DNA of 64,000 nt from Aegilops tauschii subsp. strangulata. Taxonomy: Eukaryota; Streptophyta; Magnoliopsida; Poales; Poaceae. The position numbers and the translations under genes are program-made. Positions 3,032 through 43,262 of this stretch are shown piece after piece. The DNA is taken from positions 150,723,148-150,787,147 of the forward strand of contig NC_053040.3 of NCBI RefSeq assembly GCF_002575655.3, read 5' to 3'. The notes below the pieces were generated by a model, which saw only the letters and a program-made list of their open reading frames with translations, ran no database searches and was not told the origin of the DNA. Numbering within the stretch: position 1 is the first letter of the stretch; each line of letters opens with the position of its first letter.

Positions 3032-6000
3032 GTGTTCTTGAGGTGGTACGATCTTGATGTATCACGAGCTTTGCTATTATAGTTGGATCTTATGATGTTT
3101 CTCCCCCTCTACTCTCTTGTAATGGATTGAGTTTTCCCTTTGAAGTGATCTTATCGGATTAAGTCTTTAAGGATTTGAGAACACTTTATGTATGTCTTGC
3201 ATGTGCTTATCTTTGGTGACAATGGGATATTCACGTGATCTACTTGATGTATGTTTTGGTGATCAACTTGCGGGTTCCGTAACATTGTGAACTTATGCAT
3301 AGGGGTTGGCACACGTTTTCGTCTTGACTCTCCGGTAGAAACTTTGGGGCACTCTTTGAAGTACTTTGTGTTGGTTTGAATAGATGAATCTGAGATTGTG
3401 TGATGCGTATCGTATAATCATACCCACGGATACTTGAGGTGACATTGGAGTATCTAGGTGACATTAGGGTTTTGGTTGATATGTGTCTTAAGGTGTTATT
3501 CTAGTACGAACTCTTGAATAGATCGATCCGAAAGAATAACTTTGAGGTGGTTTCGTACCCTACAATAATCTCTTCGTTTGTTCTCCGCTACTAGTGACTT
3601 TGGAGTGACTCTTTGTTGCATGTTGAGGGATAGTTATATGATCCAATTATGTTATTATTGTTGAGAGAACTTGCACTAGTGAAAGTATGAACCCTAGGCC
3701 TTGTTTCCTAGCATTGCAATACCGTTTGTGCTCACTTTTATCATTAGTTACCTTGCTGTTTTTATATTTTCAGATTACAAAAACCTATATCTACCATCCA
3801 TATTGCACTTGTATCACCATCTCTTCGCCGAACTAGTGCACCTATACAATTTACCATTGTATTGGGTGTGTTGGGGACACAAGAGACTCTTTGTTATTTG
3901 GTTGCAGGGTTGCTTGGGAGAGACCATCTTCATCCTACGCCTCTCACGGATTGATAAACCTTAGGTCATCCACTTGAGGGAAATTTGCTACTGTCCTGCA
4001 AACCTCTGCACTTGGAGGCCCAACAATGTCTACAAGAAGAAGGTTGTGTAGTAGACATCAGCTGCCAGAAGCGTAGTCTTCGACAGGACTAGCTCTCCCC
4101 CTCTTATTCTGGCATTCTGCAGTTCATTCCACCGATATTGCCCCTTTACACAGATACCCATGCATATGTAGTGTAGATCCTTCCTTGCGAGTACTTTGGA
4201 TGAGTACTCACGGTTGTTTTTCTCCCTATTTTCCTCCTTTCCTTTCCTTTCCTCTCGGTTGTCGCAACCAGATGCTGGAGCCCAGGAGCCAGATGCCACC
4301 GTCGACGACAACTCCTACTACACCGGAGGTGCCTACTACTACGTGCAGGCTGCTGACGACGACCAGGAGTGGATTAGGAGGATCCCAGGCAGGAGGCCTG
4401 CGCCTCTTTCAATCTGTATCACAGTTTGTGCTAGCCTTCTTAAGGCAAACTTGTTTAACTTATGTCTGTACTCAGATATTGTTGCTTCCGCTGACTCGTC
4501 CACGATCAAGCACTTGTATTCGAGCCCTTGAGGCCCCTGGCTTGTATTATGATGCTTGTATGACTTATTTTATTTTTAGAGTTGTGTTGTGATATCTTCC
4601 CGTGAGTCCCTGATCTTGATCGTACACGTTTGCGTGTATGATTAGTGTATGATTGAATCGGGGGCATCACAGCAACCTCGGCGCGGACCGCATCAACCTG
4701 CCGCCCTTCGTCGACGCGCCGCCGCGGGCGAAACAGAACTGGGGTTACTACCCCAAGCAACCGTCGCAGGAGGTGCTCAACCTGTGCGAGCGGGTGTTGA
4801 TGATGAAGGAGCGGGAAGGGCTCACCTGCACCGACCTCATCACCGCCTTCATCAGGCGATGAGTGTTGCCGCTGCAGCAGCGCAGCCACCTCATCGATCA
4901 GATGACCGGGCTCCAGAACGCCAACCGCATGTCGAACTTGCGGCTGGCAGCGGACCAAGTCGCCCGCCGGGTCAACGACATCTCCAGGGCCAACCTGCGG
5001 GACGACTGGGAGTTCGGGAAACCCCCATACAGCCAGATGAACCCGGCACCCGTGGTGAGTCCCTGGTCTTCATACTTTGCTGCTTCTCATCTTCTTATTC
5101 GTCCATACGCGACGCGGAAGGTGCTTCTGAACGCCATCCGGCATCCTTACAACTGGGCGCCGACGCAGGTGGCGCGGGCTGTCTCAAAGGAACCCGCGGC
5201 CCGCGGCGGAGGGGAGGAGGCGTCCGCCGACGTCGGTGCAGGGCGCCGTGCGGGTAAGTTTGTCCTCTGTATTTGTTGAGTTGCCGGGCGCGAGGCGGCA
5301 TTGGAGGTTCTGACGCGAGTTGTCGATGTAGGGGCGCTGGGTGGAGGAGGCGGCAGCGCGACTGGAGCCGGGTTGTCCCGGGGGGTGCCAGCGGCGAGCC
5401 GGCCGCATGGGAAGGACAATGTCGCGCCGCGGGCTCCGGCCGGGAAGCGCGTGGCGAACCCGGCCGGCGGCGCGAAACCTCCCGCCAAGAGGAGGCGAGG
5501 CGCTCCGCAGGAGAGGTCGGCGAGGCTTGCCGTTCCGGTGGTGCCCGGGTAAGTCCCTTGTTGTTGGATTTGAGCAGCCGAGCGGCTCTGCTTGGTTCTC
5601 GTATGTTTACTTCTTCGTGCTTCAGGTCGCCAATTTCGCCGGCGCTGGCAGCGGCGGACGGGGCGCTGTGTTCCGGAGGACCCAGACTAGCGCCGGCGAG
5701 GAGGAGGAGGAGGCGGCTAATCCGGACCTCGGCCTGGACCCGGCCGATGCCAAAGTCCAAGCCTGGTGGGACCGGAACAGGGCTGTGGCGGAGCTGGAGG
5801 CGGCGTCGACCTAGGCCTGGGACAATGCCGCGACGACGTGGGCGCGTGCCGGCGAGGAGCCGAAGTGGCCGGAGATGCCGGCAGGGACGGTTCCGGTGGT
5901 GACAGTCTTTGTGCCGGCGTCGGAGGGGGGACGCGGCCGAGGCGGCCGCGCGGACGTGATGGACTTCGACCAGGAGGTCGTGGTAGTTGGGGATGACACC

Positions 6001-36200: not shown

Positions 36201-36349
36201 TGTCGGTGTACAAAAGTAGGGGCTTTTTCTGTACCCCTTTACTTGTGCAGTCGTAGCCATGCCTGCGGCCGGGTTTGGCAGTGCGGAGGAAGGGAAGGTA
36301 CAAGGCCACTCAAGCCAGTAGCATGAAGAGCAAAAGGGCAAGGTGGATT

Positions 36350-36700
36350 CCCCCGGCAAGACCCTTGTCGGGGGCGGCCTACACAGCCCCGGCAAGAGCC
36401 TTACCGGGATGACTTGCCCAACACCAGCAAGGCCGCCACCCTTGAGCCCGAGAGTCCTGACACCATCGACAAACATCAACACCAAGGCTCAGGGGCGCCT
36501 GCGTGGTGGCATGAAGATCTTTGTGAAGACCAAAGGCCTGCAAATCTAGATGTGAACCAGAAGACGAAGACCCCCGGCAAGATCCTTGCCGGGGACAGAC
36601 GAAGGCCCCCGGCAAGATCCTTGCCGAGACGGCCACGAGACCCCCGGCAAGATCCTTGCCGGGGATGCCCACAAGATCCCGGCAAGACCCTTGCCGGGGA
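36350..36700 (+). repeat. GC-rich hairpin array in U3 (5' LTR)
   Basis: At least six imperfect units have CCCCGGCAAG and CTTGCCGGGG arms around a 3-nt loop (ATC or ACC), separated by 8-130 bp. Each unit can form a short stem-loop. The same array is at 42206-42590 in the 3' LTR. Confidence 0.88.
36426..36531 (+). other. Captured polyubiquitin coding fragments in 5' LTR
   Basis: Positions 36426-36470 translate as SKAATLEPESPDTID, matching ubiquitin residues 10-24 (K11, T14, L15, E16, E18, S19, D21-D24 identical). After 25 bp, 36496-36531 translate as RLRGGMKIFVKT, matching the junction between two ubiquitin repeats (residues 72-76 then 1-7) with a single change (Q2 to K). The two pieces are offset by one frame and lack the middle of ubiquitin, so this is a deleted gene fragment with no coding role now. 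Confidence 0.85.
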
Positions 36701-36960
36701 CATCAGCGGGGCCACAACCAGGCCCGCACCAGCGCAGCAGCCAGCCAGCTAGCGTGGCGCTGCATGCCTCGTCAGCATGGACGCGCGTCGAAGCAAGGTG
36801 AGGCGGCGACGGACGGGACGAGCTTCGTTGTCGTCCCCGATAAAGCAAGAGGACACGTAGGTGGCGCATTAAATGCGTTTGTCCCATGATGTCAGGGATA
36901 GACTCGTACACTGTAGGTGCTTTCCACCTCCTGTGTGCCACTGTGGCGACCCCTTTGACA

Positions 36961-36967
36961 TATAAAA
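36961..36967 (+). promoter_or_regulatory. TATA box of 36201-43262 element, 5' LTR
   Basis: TATAAAA is conserved at 43005-43011 in the 3' LTR, about 250 bp before the LTR end. The hairpin array and ubiquitin fragments are upstream, hence in U3. Confidence 0.65.
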
Positions 36968-37221
36968 GGTGGCCCGAGGCATACTGAGGAACGATTCAGA
37001 CTTTTTGGACTAGGCATGCACTGCAGCTAGTTCAAGAACTCAAGAACACGACATACACACAAAAGCAGGACTAGGGTATTACGCATCGTTTGCGGCTCGA
37101 ACCTGGGTAAAAATCCCCGCGTTGATCTTCTAGACTCGCTCTTTGCGCAGCTCCACGCCCCGCCAACCGTAGTAGGGATTCCCTGTGATCCCATGGGTGT
37201 CGTTCCTGAGCCCCGACATCT

Positions 37222-37238
37222 TTGGCGCGCCGGGTAGG
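37222..37238 (+). other. Primer-binding site of 36201-43262 element
   Basis: TTGGCGCGCCGGGTAGG follows the LTR end by three bases. TTGGCGCGCC is frequent at this place in grass gypsy elements. Confidence 0.65.
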
Positions 37239-37829
37239 GGGGCTGAGGCTGTGAAAATCCGGTTTTGAAGCCAACGCGTCGACTCCCTCATTAGGGTGGC
37301 TCGAGAGAAGAAGGCGACGTCGATCAGCCACACTCTGGTGCCGTCCGCGGCAGCAACAACCATCCGCATGGCGACGGAAAAGCTAAGTCACGCAAAACCT
37401 TGAGCAATTTCTTTTTTTATATAAGGTTATTCTCCTCGAAAGATCTTGCTCCTTGTATGGAAAACCTGCACGCAATGAACCCTTCTGCTATTGGCAAGGC
37501 CCTTGTTCTGTTTTGAGTCCGCTCAACAGTTCAAGCGGCCGCGCTGAGAACGGCAAGGTGGCTTGTCCAGCAGCAAGCGCCCCCCGACAGGCTGCTAAGG
37601 ATCCGTTCCTCAAAGTGCCATAGCACGAGTTTATGCGCCGGCAAGCCTATCCAACTAAGCATAGTGTGCGTACATATAAAGGAAGATCAAACAGGAAGAT
37701 AGCACGCACTATTTTAGAATACTGCAAAGTTATATTACATCAATAGTTGTTGCGGTTCTAACTTAAGATAAAATTGTCTTGGTCATGAACTCGCAGCGGC
37801 AATGAGAAACGGGGTGCCTAGTCCCGGTG
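37239..37829 (+). other. Untranslated/relic region between primer site and antisense gene
   Basis: Contains a possible gag start relic (ATG at 37368, stop after about ten codons) and AT-rich sequence. This is where gag and pol would stand in a complete relative. I see no ORF of interest. Confidence 0.45.
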
Positions 37830-40800
37830 CTAGCCCTCCACCCTCTTGACTCCGTCGACGCAGCTGATGATGGGCTCGATACGCTCTTCGAGCGCCGTGA
37901 GATCCGCATCCTCCGGCAAGCTCTCCAGCGTGTTGGTGAAGTCAACGCTGGGGTTCCAGAACGCCACCTTGGTGAGCACCTTGGTCAGGGCGCCCCGGTA
38001 GAGCCTCCGGGCCTCGTTGGCCAGATAAGCTGCTCGATTGGAGCGGAGCTGCTCTAGGGCGTCGAGGATGCGCTCGAAGAACAAGGTCAGCCTAGCATTG
38101 GGGCTTACATTCGCCTCCTCGGAGAACCTGACATCCGGCATGCCCATGACAGCTAGCTGGGTGGTGAGCTTCCCCGCGACGACGATGAAGCGGCCGATCC
38201 AGAGGTTTACGCTGTCCACGTAGTCCTTGTGGGCGGCAACGTCATCGCTCCGCAGCTGCCTCTCGTCCTCCAGGGCCTTGTTCAGGGTATCATCACGGGC
38301 CCTGTCCTTCGAAAGCGTCCCCTCCAAGCCGTCCAGTGTCATCTTCAGATTGTTGATGGAGTCGTTGGCCTCGGAGAGCAGCTTGGCCTTGTCGAAGATG
38401 GCGACTTGCGAATCCGCCAGAGTGCAGTTGGTCATGTCCCTCTCCTCCGTCAGCTCCAACATCTCCTTTTTCAGCCCATCCCGCTCCAGCTCTAGCTTCT
38501 CCACCTTGCCGGCCTGGTCCAGGGCCAGAGCATCAAGTGCATCCTTGTGCTTCTGAACCAGCTCATGGGTCCGCTGCGCGATGATCTTCCCGATTTCCTC
38601 GTCCTTGCTGCGGAGCATGGCGGCAAGCGCCTGCTCGCGAGCAACGAGGTCTTCCTCCTGGGTGTCCAACAGAGCCTACTGCTGCAGCCGGGCAGCTTCG
38701 TCCTTGGCGGCCTGTTCCTTCGCCGCCTCCCGGGCCTTCTCGATATCGGCCTGCTTCAGGATTAGCTCTCGCTTCCGCTCATCCAGCTCACCCTGGGCAG
38801 TCCTCAGTTCCTCCCGGGCCTCGCCAAACCAGACCTACGTTTGAGCGACGCGCTCCTCAAAATCCGCCTCCGCCTTGTCCACCGCCGCCATCCTGGATTT
38901 CACTTTGTCTTGGCGGGCACGGTGGAGCGCCTGGAGCTTTTGAAAGTTGGCGCTCATGGCTCGGAGAAGCTGCTCCTCTCGGGAACCGCCGCCGCCAGCG
39001 CTCGGTTCGTCAACAACCTGGAGCCCGGTGGTGGCGAGTGCCTCATCATCAAACACCTCCCCTTCGGCTGGCACTCTGGTGCTCACCGTCCCTGGGAGGC
39101 GAACAAACAGGTCGTCGCCCACCCTCAGGTACATGCCCGGGGCGGGAGCTGCGGGGGAGGAAGGTTGGTCGTTGGCCTCCTTGGCAGCGGCCTCGCCGGA
39201 CTCCCCGGCAGGCCCCACGCCGGGCTCCCCGGCAGGCCCCTTGCTGGCCTCCCTGGCAGCGGCCTCACCAGTCTCCTCAGCAAGCCCCTTGGCGGCCTCC
39301 TCGGTGGCAGACTTGGCAGCTTCCCCAGCCGCGATCTTGGTGGCCTCGGCTTCAGCATCCTTGGCGACCTCCTCGATGACGGTGCCGATATCTTCCTGGT
39401 CCATCGAGGGAGGGTCTGGAGACCAGAAAGGAGAATGAAACGAGGCCAAAATCAAGGTTCAGAACAAAGAAAAAAATAGGGACGGGAGGCAGGCCGCTTA
39501 CCCGTGCCAAGCTGAGAAGAAGTGGTTCCCTCCCCGCCAACGTTCGTGGTCGGGACGGAGCCGCCAGCACCCAAGCCGGCTCCTCTTCCTCCGTGTGCGG
39601 GGCTCGGCGGTAGATGCCCTTGCCGGGGACGCCCCTCTGGGCGCCGTGGTCGATGGGGGCAGCGTGTCGGGGGCGGCCCTCAGCGGCTCCTCCTGTTGCC
39701 GCTCTCCTCCTGCAAACCCGGCAAGGTCAGCACCAAGGATTCATGCCCCAACGCCCATCGATGAGGAGTTAGTAATGAACTCACGCTGGGGGCTGAAGCG
39801 GGGGCTGCGTCAAGGGCTGTTGTCCGGGCTGATCTCCACTAACACCGGCGTGCGCGGAGTGCTCGCCGGGGGCTTGTCACCCGTTGAAGCCTTGGCCCTC
39901 TTCGCTGCCCTCTGGGCCAGCGTCTCCGTGACACTGCAAAGATAAGATCATGTCAGGGAAAATGGCATAGGCTCAGGGTCAGAAATGACGAAGGGTGAGG
40001 TACTTACTCGTCCTCCTCTGGCCTCCTCTTCCTCTTCAGGCTGAAGGACCCGAGGTCGAAATCGGCCTCCGGGGTGCCGTCTGAAGGAGGAGGAGAAGGG
40101 GATGGGGTCCTGCGCCACTTGGATGAGGAAGAGGCGGCGGCCGCTGCCTTCTTCGCTGCCGCGGCCCTCGTCAGATGCACGGGCTGTGCCTGGGCCTATT
40201 GCCGTTGCGTGGTTCTGCCGGGCCGGACCGGCTCGCTAGAGCTAGCCCGCCGCAGGACGTGTTTCCTCCCCGGGGCCGAGGAGTCATCTGCCTTGGTCTC
40301 CCCTTCGGCCGACTCCTCAACCGCTTCCTCAACAAAGGGGGCCCCGGTGCCGGTGCTGCTGGCTTCCCCGGCAAACCCCGCCCACTCGGCGAGCTCTTTC
40401 TCTTCCGCGGCCGTGTCAGCCTCGTCCTCCATGGTGCCAATGCTGTCGGCCTCCTTAGCAAGTGTCGCCTCCTCCGCCCTGGCGGCAATGTATGCCAGCT
40501 CTTCCATAGTGGTGTCGTGGACGAGCAGTGGCTCGTCATGAATATACTCTCCGACAGGTTGTCGAAGAATGCCTGCACCCGCTCCGCTTCCGGCTCGCCC
40601 CAAGTTGGATCGAGGCCATGCGCGTTGAAGTCCGGCATCATGGCGATGATGGCGGTTTGGCAAGAGCTGTTGCTCAATGGGACCACTCCCGCTGGCAACC
40701 CAAACAGAGACCCGTCGGCCTTGACGGCCTTGCCGATCCTCTCGACTCTGTCGGCCTTGTCAACCTTGAGCTGAAAGAGCCTCTGGCAAAGATGAGCATG

Positions 40801-41645
40801 CTGCAGCATCGTGAAATTGTGTTTCAGGCCGGGGCGGAGCCTCATGATGTCGGCCGCGTTCCTGAACTCCCAGGCCGGCCTCCCCTTGTTGTGCAGTGGG
40901 GCAATCCGACGGCGGATGAAGTCAGCCCCAATCATCTCGACGGTGAGCCCGGCCAAAGTGAGGCGGTGGATCCTGGTGGTGGCGACCGTGAGCTTCTTGT
41001 CATCGGCGTCGAGCTCGCCCCAGTCCTTGCTGCGGACCGGCGGCCTCCGACGGACCCGGCAGAACTCCTGCGGATCTGTCTCCTCGATCCAGCACCACCG
41101 GCCCCGCCACTCACCCCACCTCTCCTTCTGGGCTACCTCCAGGTACGTGCCCCTGCTCTGGGTCTTCGGGATCCAAGTAATACAGCCAGAGATGGCGCCC
41201 CCTGGCTGGATGCGAGGGGTGAAGTAATGGCGGAAAAGCGCCGTGCTGGGATGCACTCCGGCAAAGCCCTCACAAAGATGGCAAAGAAGGCCATGCACGC
41301 CACAGCGTTCAGCATGAAATCCAGAAGGTGGAAGCCGTAGGTGTGCATGATGTCGTTGAAGAAATCTGAGAAAGGGGGGCAGAGCCCGCAGAAGAAATAA
41401 TCAACAAAGAAGGGATATCGGTTTGGACCGGCCTCGGCGAAGGAAGCAGGGATGATGTGTGTGGCAGGGTGCCCCGACGTCTCCCTTCCCCACAGAGGCC
41501 TGAACATGTCCCTGAGGGTGAGCGCATCGACCGTCGAGGTGAAGAGGGCGCGCTGCGTCCGAAGCTCCACCAACTTGCTCTCCGGCGCCTCCTTCCCTCC
41601 GTCGTCTTTGGCCGCTCCCTTGCCCTTGCTTGTCTTGGGTGCCAT
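37830..41645 (-). pseudogene. Antisense accessory gene with PF04195 domain and coiled coil
   Basis: Starts at an ATG at 41645 (MAPKTSKGKGAAKDD). The N-terminal half carries the PF04195-type domain ('putative gypsy type transposon'), with FFCGLCPPFSDFF, DIMHTYGFHLLDF and ALFRHYFTPRI. A frameshift near 41285 separates its two parts. An acidic linker follows (40200-40560), then Ala/Glu-rich low-complexity sequence (39150-39400) and a long coiled coil (38100-38900). The C-terminal 279-codon frame, stop at 37830, is intact. Splice-like signals (for example reverse CTTAC at 39497-39501) separate blocks. Stops near 38835 and 38678 break it. It is the homologue of the plus-strand gene at 4672-8169 in the other element. 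Function unknown; despite the Pfam name there is no transposase chemistry visible. Confidence 0.75.
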
Positions 41646-42205
41646 GGCGACTGGGAGGGGATGAAGGATCGAGGGCAATGGGGGTGCGATGGCGGTGAGC
41701 AGAGGCGAGAGCTTTGATTTGCGCTTGAGGAAGAAGAAGGGATCAGCGGTTCCAAGATTGGAAAAGGCACAGAGGGTAAATGAGCAGCGCCCTTGTGATT
41801 TCCTCTTTTTTATGGGGAAGGCGCGGGCCGCCTCTTTACTATTCACCACGAGGTGACGCAAGCGTGCTACGGCCAGTCCACGCACGACCCCCATGTCACG
41901 CACTCAATGCGGATCATGGGGAAGTGCAACTGGCGAGGGAGTTACCTCAGTTAAAACTCTGCCACGCATGCCCGCGCACCGTTCTGGGCCTGGCCCAACA
42001 ACGCCTTGCGCTTGTGTGTGGCCTAGGCCCGGGGGCTCCTGTCGGTGTACAAAAGTAGGGGCCTTTTCTGTACCCCTTTACTTGTGCACGGGCAGTCGTA
42101 GCCATGCCTGCGGCCGGATTTGGCAGGGCAGAGGAAGGGAAGGTACAAGGCTACCGAGGGGGCACTCAAGCCAGAAGCATGAAGAGCACAGGAGCAAGGT
42201 GGATT

Positions 42206-42590
42206 CCCCCGGCAAGACCCTTGCCGGGGCGGCCTACACAGCCCCGGCAAGAGCCTTGATGGGGCGACTTGCCCAACACCAGCAAGGCCGCCACCCTTGA
42301 GCCCAAGAGTCCTGACACCATCGACAAACATCAAGACCAAGGCTCAGGGGCGCCTGCGTGGTGGCATGCAGATTATTGTGAAGACCAAAGGCCTGCAAAT
42401 CTAGATGGGAACCAGAAGACGAAGACCCCTGGTGAGATCCTTGCCGGGGACAGACAAAGGCCCCCGGCAAGATCCTTGCCGGGACGGCCATGACACCCCC
42501 GACAAGATCCTTGCCGGGGACGCCCACAAGATCCCGGCAAGATCCTTGCCGGGGACGCCCACAAGATCCTGGCAAGACCCTTGCCGGGGA
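42206..42590 (+). repeat. GC-rich hairpin array in U3 (3' LTR)
   Basis: Same unit type as 36350-36700, with one more or better-preserved repeat and different point changes, for example a GTGAGATCC variant near 42432. Confidence 0.85.
42281..42386 (+). other. Captured polyubiquitin fragment in 3' LTR, copy 1
   Basis: 42281-42325 matches ubiquitin residues 10-24. 42351-42386 reads RLRGGMQIIVKT, matching the inter-repeat junction with one change (F4 to I). Here Q2 is kept, unlike the 5' LTR copy, so the ancestor matched ubiquitin better than either copy. Confidence 0.85.
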
Positions 42591-42725
42591 CATCTTCAGG
42601 GCCACAACCAGGCCCGCACCTACCAAGGTTTCGCTATCCCACGGCCGTTCTGATGCGGCAACCAGTCTGCCAAACTAGGCACGCACCTACATGGTAGCAA
42701 GCAACCTCTAGGCCGACCAGTCAAG

Positions 42726-42764
42726 CACCTGCGTGGTGGCATGCAGATCTTCGTGAAGACCCTG
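42726..42764 (+). other. Captured polyubiquitin fragment in 3' LTR, copy 2
   Basis: Translates as HLRGGMQIFVKTL, matching ubiquitin residues 72-76 plus 1-8 with one difference (R72 to H). It is present only in the 3' LTR, inside the segment missing from the 5' LTR. Confidence 0.88.
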
Positions 42765-43262
42765 CCACCGCACCAGTGCAGCAGCCAGCCAGCCAGCGTG
42801 GCGTTGCATGCCTCGTCAGCTTGGACGCACGTCGAAGCAAGGCGAGGCGGCGACGGGTGGGACAAGCTTCGTTGCCGTGCCCGATAAAGCAAGAGGACAC
42901 GTAGGTGGCGCATTAAATGCGTTTGTCCCACGATGTCAGGGATAGACTCATTCACTGTAGGTGCTTTCCACCTCCCGTGTGCCACTGTGGAGACCCCTTT
43001 GACATATAAAAGGAGGCCCAAGGCGTACTGAGGAAGGATTCGGACTTTTTGGACTAGGCATGCACTGTAGCTAGTTCAAGAACTCAAGAACACCAAATAC
43101 ACACAAAAGCAGGACTAGGGTATTACGCATCGTTTTCGGCCCAAACCTGGGTAAAAATCCCCGCGTTGATCTTCTAGACCCGCTCTTTGCGCAGCTCCAC
43201 ACCCCGCGAACCGTAGTAGGGATTCCTTGTGATCTCATAGGTGTCGTTCCTGAGCCCCGACA

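What the first reader, a model, noticed from the sequence alone, without database searches (positions are those of the whole stretch)
36426..36531. Polyubiquitin coding fragments captured inside a retrotransposon LTR
Seen directly: two adjacent stretches of the LTR translate to ubiquitin residues 10-24 (10 of the last 14 identical) and to the RLRGG-MKIFVKT junction between ubiquitin repeats (11 of 12 identical). The corresponding region of the 3' LTR (42281-42386) keeps Q2, and a third stretch (42726-42764) gives HLRGGMQIFVKTL. The repeat-to-repeat junction is diagnostic of a polyubiquitin gene rather than a single ubiquitin. The fragments lie in U3, in sense, upstream of the TATA box. Gene capture by LTR elements usually affects the internal region; capture into an LTR, then copied to both ends, is unusual.
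Basis: partly seen in the sequence, partly recalled or inferred. Interest (0 to 1): 0.87.

Follow-up and report, generated by a model that had tools for sequence, protein, structure and literature searches.

The report
Ubiquitin gene scraps inside retrotransposon LTRs
A large family of jumping elements in a plant genome that looks like a wheat relative carries, in the control region at its ends, three broken pieces of the plant's own ubiquitin gene, copied to thousands of places; the pieces are real but look like decaying passengers.

Summary
The LTRs (36201-37218, 42040-43262) carry three sense polyubiquitin pieces in U3: codons 9-31, codons 72-76|1-7 and, in the 3' LTR only, 72-76|1-8. Host polyubiquitin DNA matches the window's piece 3 at 97% and piece 1 at 73-78%. 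Tiles over the pieces reach 48-54 bits; 3162 other window tiles reach at most 32.8. In 37 LTR copies chosen by their U5 end, not by ubiquitin, 37 of 37 share 21-37 exact bases with host polyubiquitin in sense; antisense gives at most 15. The match improves in relatives: 16 of 35 sequences lack the window's extra base, and four read SSDTIDNV in frame. A 51-mer of piece 3 occurs at 3336 places within 3 mismatches, reversed control 0. A relative with gag-pol (Gypsy) domains has the same LTR. The window's 5' LTR lost piece 3 by a 154-bp deletion. Conservation tests disagree, so no function is shown. Best explanation: a polyubiquitin segment was captured into U3 of an ancestral Gypsy LTR, probably by reverse-transcriptase template switching, and amplified while decaying. 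Gene capture by LTR elements is known; spread inside the LTR is an unusual variant.

The parts
36201..37218 (+). 5' LTR (1018 bp), TG...CA; lacks piece 3
   Evidence: LTR pair alignment, 952 of 1017 aligned bases identical, K2P 0.067
42040..43262 (+). 3' LTR (1223 bp), carries all three ubiquitin pieces
   Evidence: flanks GAGGC / GAGCC, a 5-bp target duplication with one mismatch
37219..42039 (.). internal region; no gag or pol domain in the 14 ORFs scanned; antisense ORFs
   Evidence: Pfam on 4 antisense and 10 sense internal ORFs chosen: only PF04195
36423..36493 (+). piece 1 in 5' LTR: ubiquitin codons 9-31, one extra A
   Evidence: 73% over 71 bp to L011, E 3e-8; 78% over 65 bp to L032
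42278..42348 (+). piece 1 in 3' LTR
   Evidence: 73% over 71 bp to L011; 78% over 65 bp to L032
36496..36531 (+). piece 2 in 5' LTR: codons 72-76|1-7 (repeat junction)
   Evidence: 33 of 36 bases to L009
42351..42386 (+). piece 2 in 3' LTR
   Evidence: 91.9% of 37 bp to L068
42725..42764 (+). piece 3, 3' LTR only: repeat junction codons 72-76|1-8; in relatives the match can begin near codon 68 and reach codon 9-13
   Evidence: 37 of 39 bases to L063 and L068; 51-58 bp matches in other copies
36724..36730 (+). CCGCACC, where 154 bp with piece 3 are missing from the 5' LTR (the 3' LTR has CCGCACC at 42614-42620 and 42768-42774)
   Evidence: read; 7 of 7 further copies hold the segment
36562..36702 (+). 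35-bp tandem array with palindromes; in the 3' LTR (42435-42592) it lies between pieces 2 and 3
   Evidence: ubiquitin origin not supported, p about 0.10
36960..36969 (+). TATA-like box ATATAAAAGG (3' LTR 43004-43013); pieces lie upstream, so in U3
   Evidence: by inspection; no transcript data
41133..41903 (-). antisense ORF with PF04195 (Transposase_28, 'putative gypsy type transposon')
   Evidence: E 1.7e-6, 28.6 bits against cut-off 26.2

Best explanation
A stretch of a host polyubiquitin gene, in sense and including repeat junctions, entered U3 of an ancestral Gypsy LTR. It most likely came in as cDNA: reverse transcriptase switched template from element RNA to abundant polyubiquitin mRNA while copying U3, and strand transfer then placed the new U3 in both LTRs. 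The altered LTR, found on a gag-pol-bearing Gypsy element and on a partner without recognised gag-pol, spread to thousands of sites. The segment lost its middle parts, gained an extra base in some copies, and decays with the rest of the LTR. Shown: polyubiquitin origin, sense orientation, place in the LTR, presence in nearly all sampled copies, later loss from one LTR. Inferred: a single capture, its direction and the template-switch mechanism.
For: Origin. Decoys: best bits per sequence 48.3-68.3 in sense over 38 sequences (37 copies plus window), antisense at most 32.6, reversed host at most 28.3. Longest exact sense match 21-37 nt in 37 of 37 copies, antisense at most 15, reversed at most 13. 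Copies without the extra base. Genome-wide: 33-mer of piece 2 exact at 156 places, 51-mer of piece 3 within 3 mismatches at 3336, reversed controls 0 and 0; 14 of 14 piece-3 places that I picked lie in this LTR. L059 has gag, protease-like, RT, RNase H-like and integrase matches; LTRs L046 and L050 on either side of it carry the pieces. All three pieces in sense fits an mRNA template.
Against: No pre-capture ('empty') LTR was found, so breakpoints and direction are not seen. Three sense pieces also fit one DNA-level insertion. Polyubiquitin coding exons lack introns to mark cDNA (recalled). The pieces are cores of 36-42 bp at about 90-97% beside poorly matching flanks; piece 1 is more changed than pieces 2 and 3, which could mean separate captures, and the two junction pieces could also be an internal duplication.
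Confidence: 0.6

Rival explanations
1. Capture at the DNA level: a double-strand break in one LTR was repaired with short templated filler from a polyubiquitin gene; the next transposition spread that U3 to both ends.
For: Short pieces of 36-72 bp with abrupt ends resemble filler DNA; the 154-bp loss between 7-bp repeats shows that ordinary repair remodels these LTRs.
Against: All three pieces are in sense (antisense only at background); independent fillers should vary in orientation.
Confidence: 0.3
2. The pieces came with another transposon (Helitron, MULE or CACTA) that had captured ubiquitin and inserted into the LTR.
For: Such elements capture genes often (passages seen in PMC2774510 and PMC4290129).
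Against: Weak: transposon ends or target duplications around the pieces were not searched for; none was noticed, and the tandem-repeat search shows only short arrays.
Confidence: 0.07
3. The pieces are kept by selection in U3, as a regulatory site or through identity with an essential host transcript.
For: In the U5-chosen sample, core 2, core 3 and piece 1 exceed most U3 windows (31 of 609, 19 of 603 and 9 of 538 windows equal or higher). Piece 3 is the most widely shared 51-mer of the window's U3 among those tried (30 of 37 copies within 3 mismatches; best non-ubiquitin window 21 of 37).
Against: Without CpG sites the ranks fall to 75 of 599, 52 of 593 and 110 of 538. In the ubiquitin-chosen set core 3 is unremarkable (27% of windows as high); in the piece-3-chosen set core 2 and piece 1 are (231 of 878, 272 of 840). 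Stops and changes occur in the pieces.
Confidence: 0.06
4. Chance similarity of GC-rich LTR sequence to ubiquitin codons.
For: Single pieces are short; protein-level E-values in the window alone are only 0.01-0.75.
Against: Tile, antisense and reversed controls.
Confidence: 0.01

Closest known systems
Gene-fragment capture by maize LTR retrotransposons (PMC2774510, passages seen)
   Same: Host coding fragments carried and amplified by LTR elements; 425 intact elements, at least 189 captures reported there
   Different: The passages seen do not say where in the element the fragments lie; here they lie in the LTR and in nearly all sampled copies of a family with thousands of LTR places
Maize Bs1 retroelement with a proton-ATPase fragment (Jin and Bennetzen 1994; title seen in a reference list; rest recalled)
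   Same: Transduction of a cellular gene fragment by a plant LTR element
   Different: Fragment internal, low copy (recalled); here U3, high copy, in LTRs
CACTA gene capture on wheat 3B (PMC4290129, passages seen)
   Same: Wheat-group transposon carrying host gene pieces
   Different: DNA transposon; some captured genes expressed and under selection

Membership tests
LTR retrotransposon | Two direct LTRs with TG...CA ends | tested here: met
   36201-37218 and 42040-43262
LTR retrotransposon | Target-site duplication | tested here: inconclusive
   GAGGC / GAGCC, 4 of 5
Gypsy superfamily, gag-pol-bearing | gag, protease, RT, RNase H, then integrase | tested here: met
   In relative L059: PF03732, PF13650 (just under its cut-off), PF00078, PF13456, PF00665 in that order, on separate ORFs; whether it can move was not tested
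Gypsy superfamily, gag-pol-bearing | gag-pol in the window element itself | tested here: not met
   No such domain in the 14 internal ORFs scanned; a partner with shared LTR
Host gene capture by LTR element | Segment homologous to a host gene outside the transposon | tested here: met
   Host polyubiquitin loci in the same genome
Host gene capture by LTR element | Shared by several copies, so acquired before their spread | tested here: met
Host gene capture by LTR element | Related element without the segment | tested here: inconclusive
   None seen; the copies lacking pieces 1-2 in the U5 set (L079, L092, L103) are deleted or truncated there; more distant relatives not reached
Functional exapted U3 motif | Slower evolution than flanking LTR | tested here: inconclusive
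   disagree by sample

The most novel reading that the evidence does not exclude
The ubiquitin identity in U3 shields the element from RNA silencing. U3 lies at the 3' end of element RNA, and 37 of 37 sampled LTRs share at least 21 exact bases with host polyubiquitin, mRNAs the plant cannot do without, so small RNAs against this part would also hit polyubiquitin and be selected against. The LTR thus holds a host transcript hostage, or conversely tunes polyubiquitin expression.
Probability: 0.04. Interest if true: 0.88.

Novelty: new variant of a known kind. Interest (0 to 1): 0.5.

Why it matters
Thousands of LTR places with long exact matches to an essential, much-used reference gene matter for small-RNA mapping, primer and probe design on ubiquitin, and gene annotation in this plant group. 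A capture into U3 shared by gag-pol-bearing and partner elements also gives a marker for how LTR promoter regions gain host DNA, and makes the silencing-shield idea directly testable with small-RNA data.

Tried and rejected
Chance (rejected). 35-bp array as a ubiquitin derivative: the alignment looks suggestive but p is about 0.10 by a doublet shuffle; not claimed. Extension of piece 2 to codon 33 in L088: gappy, not relied on. Strong selection on the cores: my remark in the notes (no changes at 48 first and second codon positions in the cores against about 11 of 48 in piece 1, counted by eye) is not backed by the population comparisons. Antisense ubiquitin hit in the 3' LTR (E 0.008): background. 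Exact 43-mer in viral contigs and genome contigs: 0 and 0, uninformative for plants. Papers: nine searches (three of them returned nothing) showed no title or abstract start on ubiquitin pieces in a plant LTR; except for passages of PMC2774510 and PMC4290129 the papers were seen as listings only, and subscription journals and supplements are not covered. Not obtained: the DNA search with 42606-42790, the search with L088:384-578 for older or longer ubiquitin segments, and the genome-wide control count for a non-ubiquitin 51-mer (42880-42930), so 3336 has no within-LTR yardstick.

Full report
What is there. The window is C6:150723148-150787147 of a 4.1-Gb genome in 692 contigs. Its contigs C1-C7 of about 498-654 Mb fit the wheat D genome or Aegilops tauschii (inference from size, recalled; no name was given). 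The finding lies in an LTR retrotransposon with LTRs 36201-37218 and 42040-43262, TG...CA ends, a 4-of-5 target duplication and LTR divergence K2P 0.067, about 2.6 million years at 1.3e-8 per site per year (rate recalled). Fourteen internal ORFs, chosen from the list and scanned with Pfam, give only PF04195, on the antisense strand. A relative, L059, lies between two LTRs of the same kind (L046 and L050, K2P 0.070) and has gag, protease-like, RT, RNase H-like and integrase matches on separate ORFs. L062 matches the window element over 5.7 kb at 87%. So a gag-pol-bearing Gypsy element and a partner without recognised gag-pol share this LTR.

The ubiquitin pieces. Ubiquitin loci were found in the same genome (143 matches; 30 loci cut, 16 more fetched; 33 of these 46 yielded 125 units, with 68 distinct repeat junctions). 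Against them the LTR holds, in sense: piece 1, codons 9-31 (about 71 bp); piece 2, codons 72-76|1-7; and, after a 35-bp tandem array, piece 3, codons 72-76|1-8, which in other copies can extend from about codon 68 to codon 9-13. The best host junctions (L063 and L068, C6 near 114 Mb) match piece 3 of the window in 37 of 39 bases and piece 2 of copy L002 in 35 of 36. The junction points to a polyubiquitin gene as source.

Chance. Of 3195 tiles of 120 bp across the window, 33 overlap the pieces and reach at most 54.4 bits; the other 3162 reach at most 32.8. Per piece, one search gives 54.4, 48.2 and 54.4 bits. That earlier version printed a null maximum of 40.5 because an edge tile of piece 2 was counted as null.

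Other copies. Search with the 106-bp finding gave 2670 first-look candidates, 40 scored, 2 of them the window. Of the 38 others 27 were fetched; 25 (two with a second LTR fragment left out) were aligned, and 25 of 25 have pieces 2 and 3. This set was chosen by ubiquitin-bearing DNA, so a second set was drawn by U5 (5762 candidates, 40 scored, 2 of them the window). Of the 38 others 37 were used: 32 fetched already held from the first set; L047 was left out. Piece 3 is in 37 of 37; pieces 1 and 2 in 34 of 37, the rest (L079, L092, L103) being deleted or truncated there; L110 has piece 1 in part. Best score per sequence in sense is 48.3-68.3 bits for 38 sequences; antisense at most 32.6; reversed host at most 28.3. 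The longest exact sense match is 21-37 nt (median 27) in 37 of 37; antisense at most 15, reversed at most 13. In 16 of 35 sequences (34 copies and the window's 3' LTR) the extra A of piece 1 is absent; four of these read SSDTIDNV in frame (L080, L088, L090, L096), and L088 and L108 match host DNA at 86% over 64 bp. On a tree of U3 outside the pieces the two states are mixed, so copies have recombined or the base changed more than once. Not every copy is better: L093 has 72%. But the match does not fade with more copies.

Genome-wide. The exact 33-mer of piece 2 plus AAA occurs 156 times, reversed control 0. A 51-mer of piece 3 with LTR flank occurs 3336 times within 3 mismatches, control 0; 95 are exact by my count of the listing. 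Fourteen of these places, picked by me from the listing (13 exact, 1 with one mismatch), all lie in this LTR; piece 2 was detected in 12 of 14 and piece 1 in 10 of 14.

The window's two LTRs. The 5' LTR lacks piece 3 because 154 bp between two CCGCACC repeats are gone (36724-36730 against 42614-42620 and 42768-42774); seven of seven copies keep the segment. K2 of the 5' LTR is found in 0 of 25 copies and 1 of 34; I4 of the 3' LTR in none of these.

Age. U3 outside the pieces differs by median K2P 0.16 among sequences with the extra A and 0.19 among those without, up to 0.27: roughly 6-10 million years by the recalled rate. The capture is at least that old if single.

Function. Tests of conservation disagree. 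U5 set: cores and piece 1 in the top 2-5% of U3 windows, top 9-20% after removing CpG sites. Ubiquitin-chosen set: core 3 ordinary. Piece-3-chosen set: core 2 and piece 1 ordinary. Windows overlap, so ranks are not probabilities. The 51-mer around piece 3 is the most widely shared of those tried in the window's U3 (30 of 37 copies within 3 mismatches against 21 of 37 for the best other), but the matching genome-wide control could not be run (asked, unanswered). I conclude that the pieces most likely decay with the LTR.

Mechanism. A sequence put into U3 at the 3' end of element RNA is copied to both LTRs by normal strand transfer (established knowledge of LTR elements). Sense orientation of the pieces and the abundance of polyubiquitin mRNA (recalled) favour template switching in reverse transcription; DNA repair filler is the main rival. 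No pre-capture LTR was seen, so this step is inferred.

Known or new. Gene-fragment capture by LTR elements is established (PMC2774510, passages). Nine literature searches listed no title or abstract start on ubiquitin in a plant LTR. I file it as a new variant of a known kind.

Noticed in passing
37219-42039, minus strand: The element carries long ORFs antisense to its LTRs, with PF04195 matched in two overlapping frames (one above, one below cut-off); a like element (L062) shares 5.7 kb at 87%.
   Followed up: partly
36350-36410, 36562-36702, 42206-42264, 42435-42592: Palindromic repeats of the type CCCCGGCAAGATCCTTGCCGGGG lie before piece 1 and between pieces 2 and 3; the stretch GAAGACCCCCGGCAAGA resembles ubiquitin codons 6-12 but not significantly (p about 0.10).
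   Followed up: partly
36724-36730 against 42614-42774: Loss of 154 bp between 7-bp direct repeats CCGCACC in one LTR of the pair.
   Followed up: yes
G000 C7 about 579-591 Mb and C3 about 609-611 Mb: Clusters of ubiquitin or ubiquitin-like loci, some on C7 with stops, appear in the host search.
   Followed up: no
G000 C2 488.33-488.49 Mb: Pairs of LTRs of this family lie only 2-4 kb apart, and L005, L043 and L045, 22-150 kb apart, are nearly identical (K2P 0.009-0.025), which hints at local duplication.
   Followed up: no
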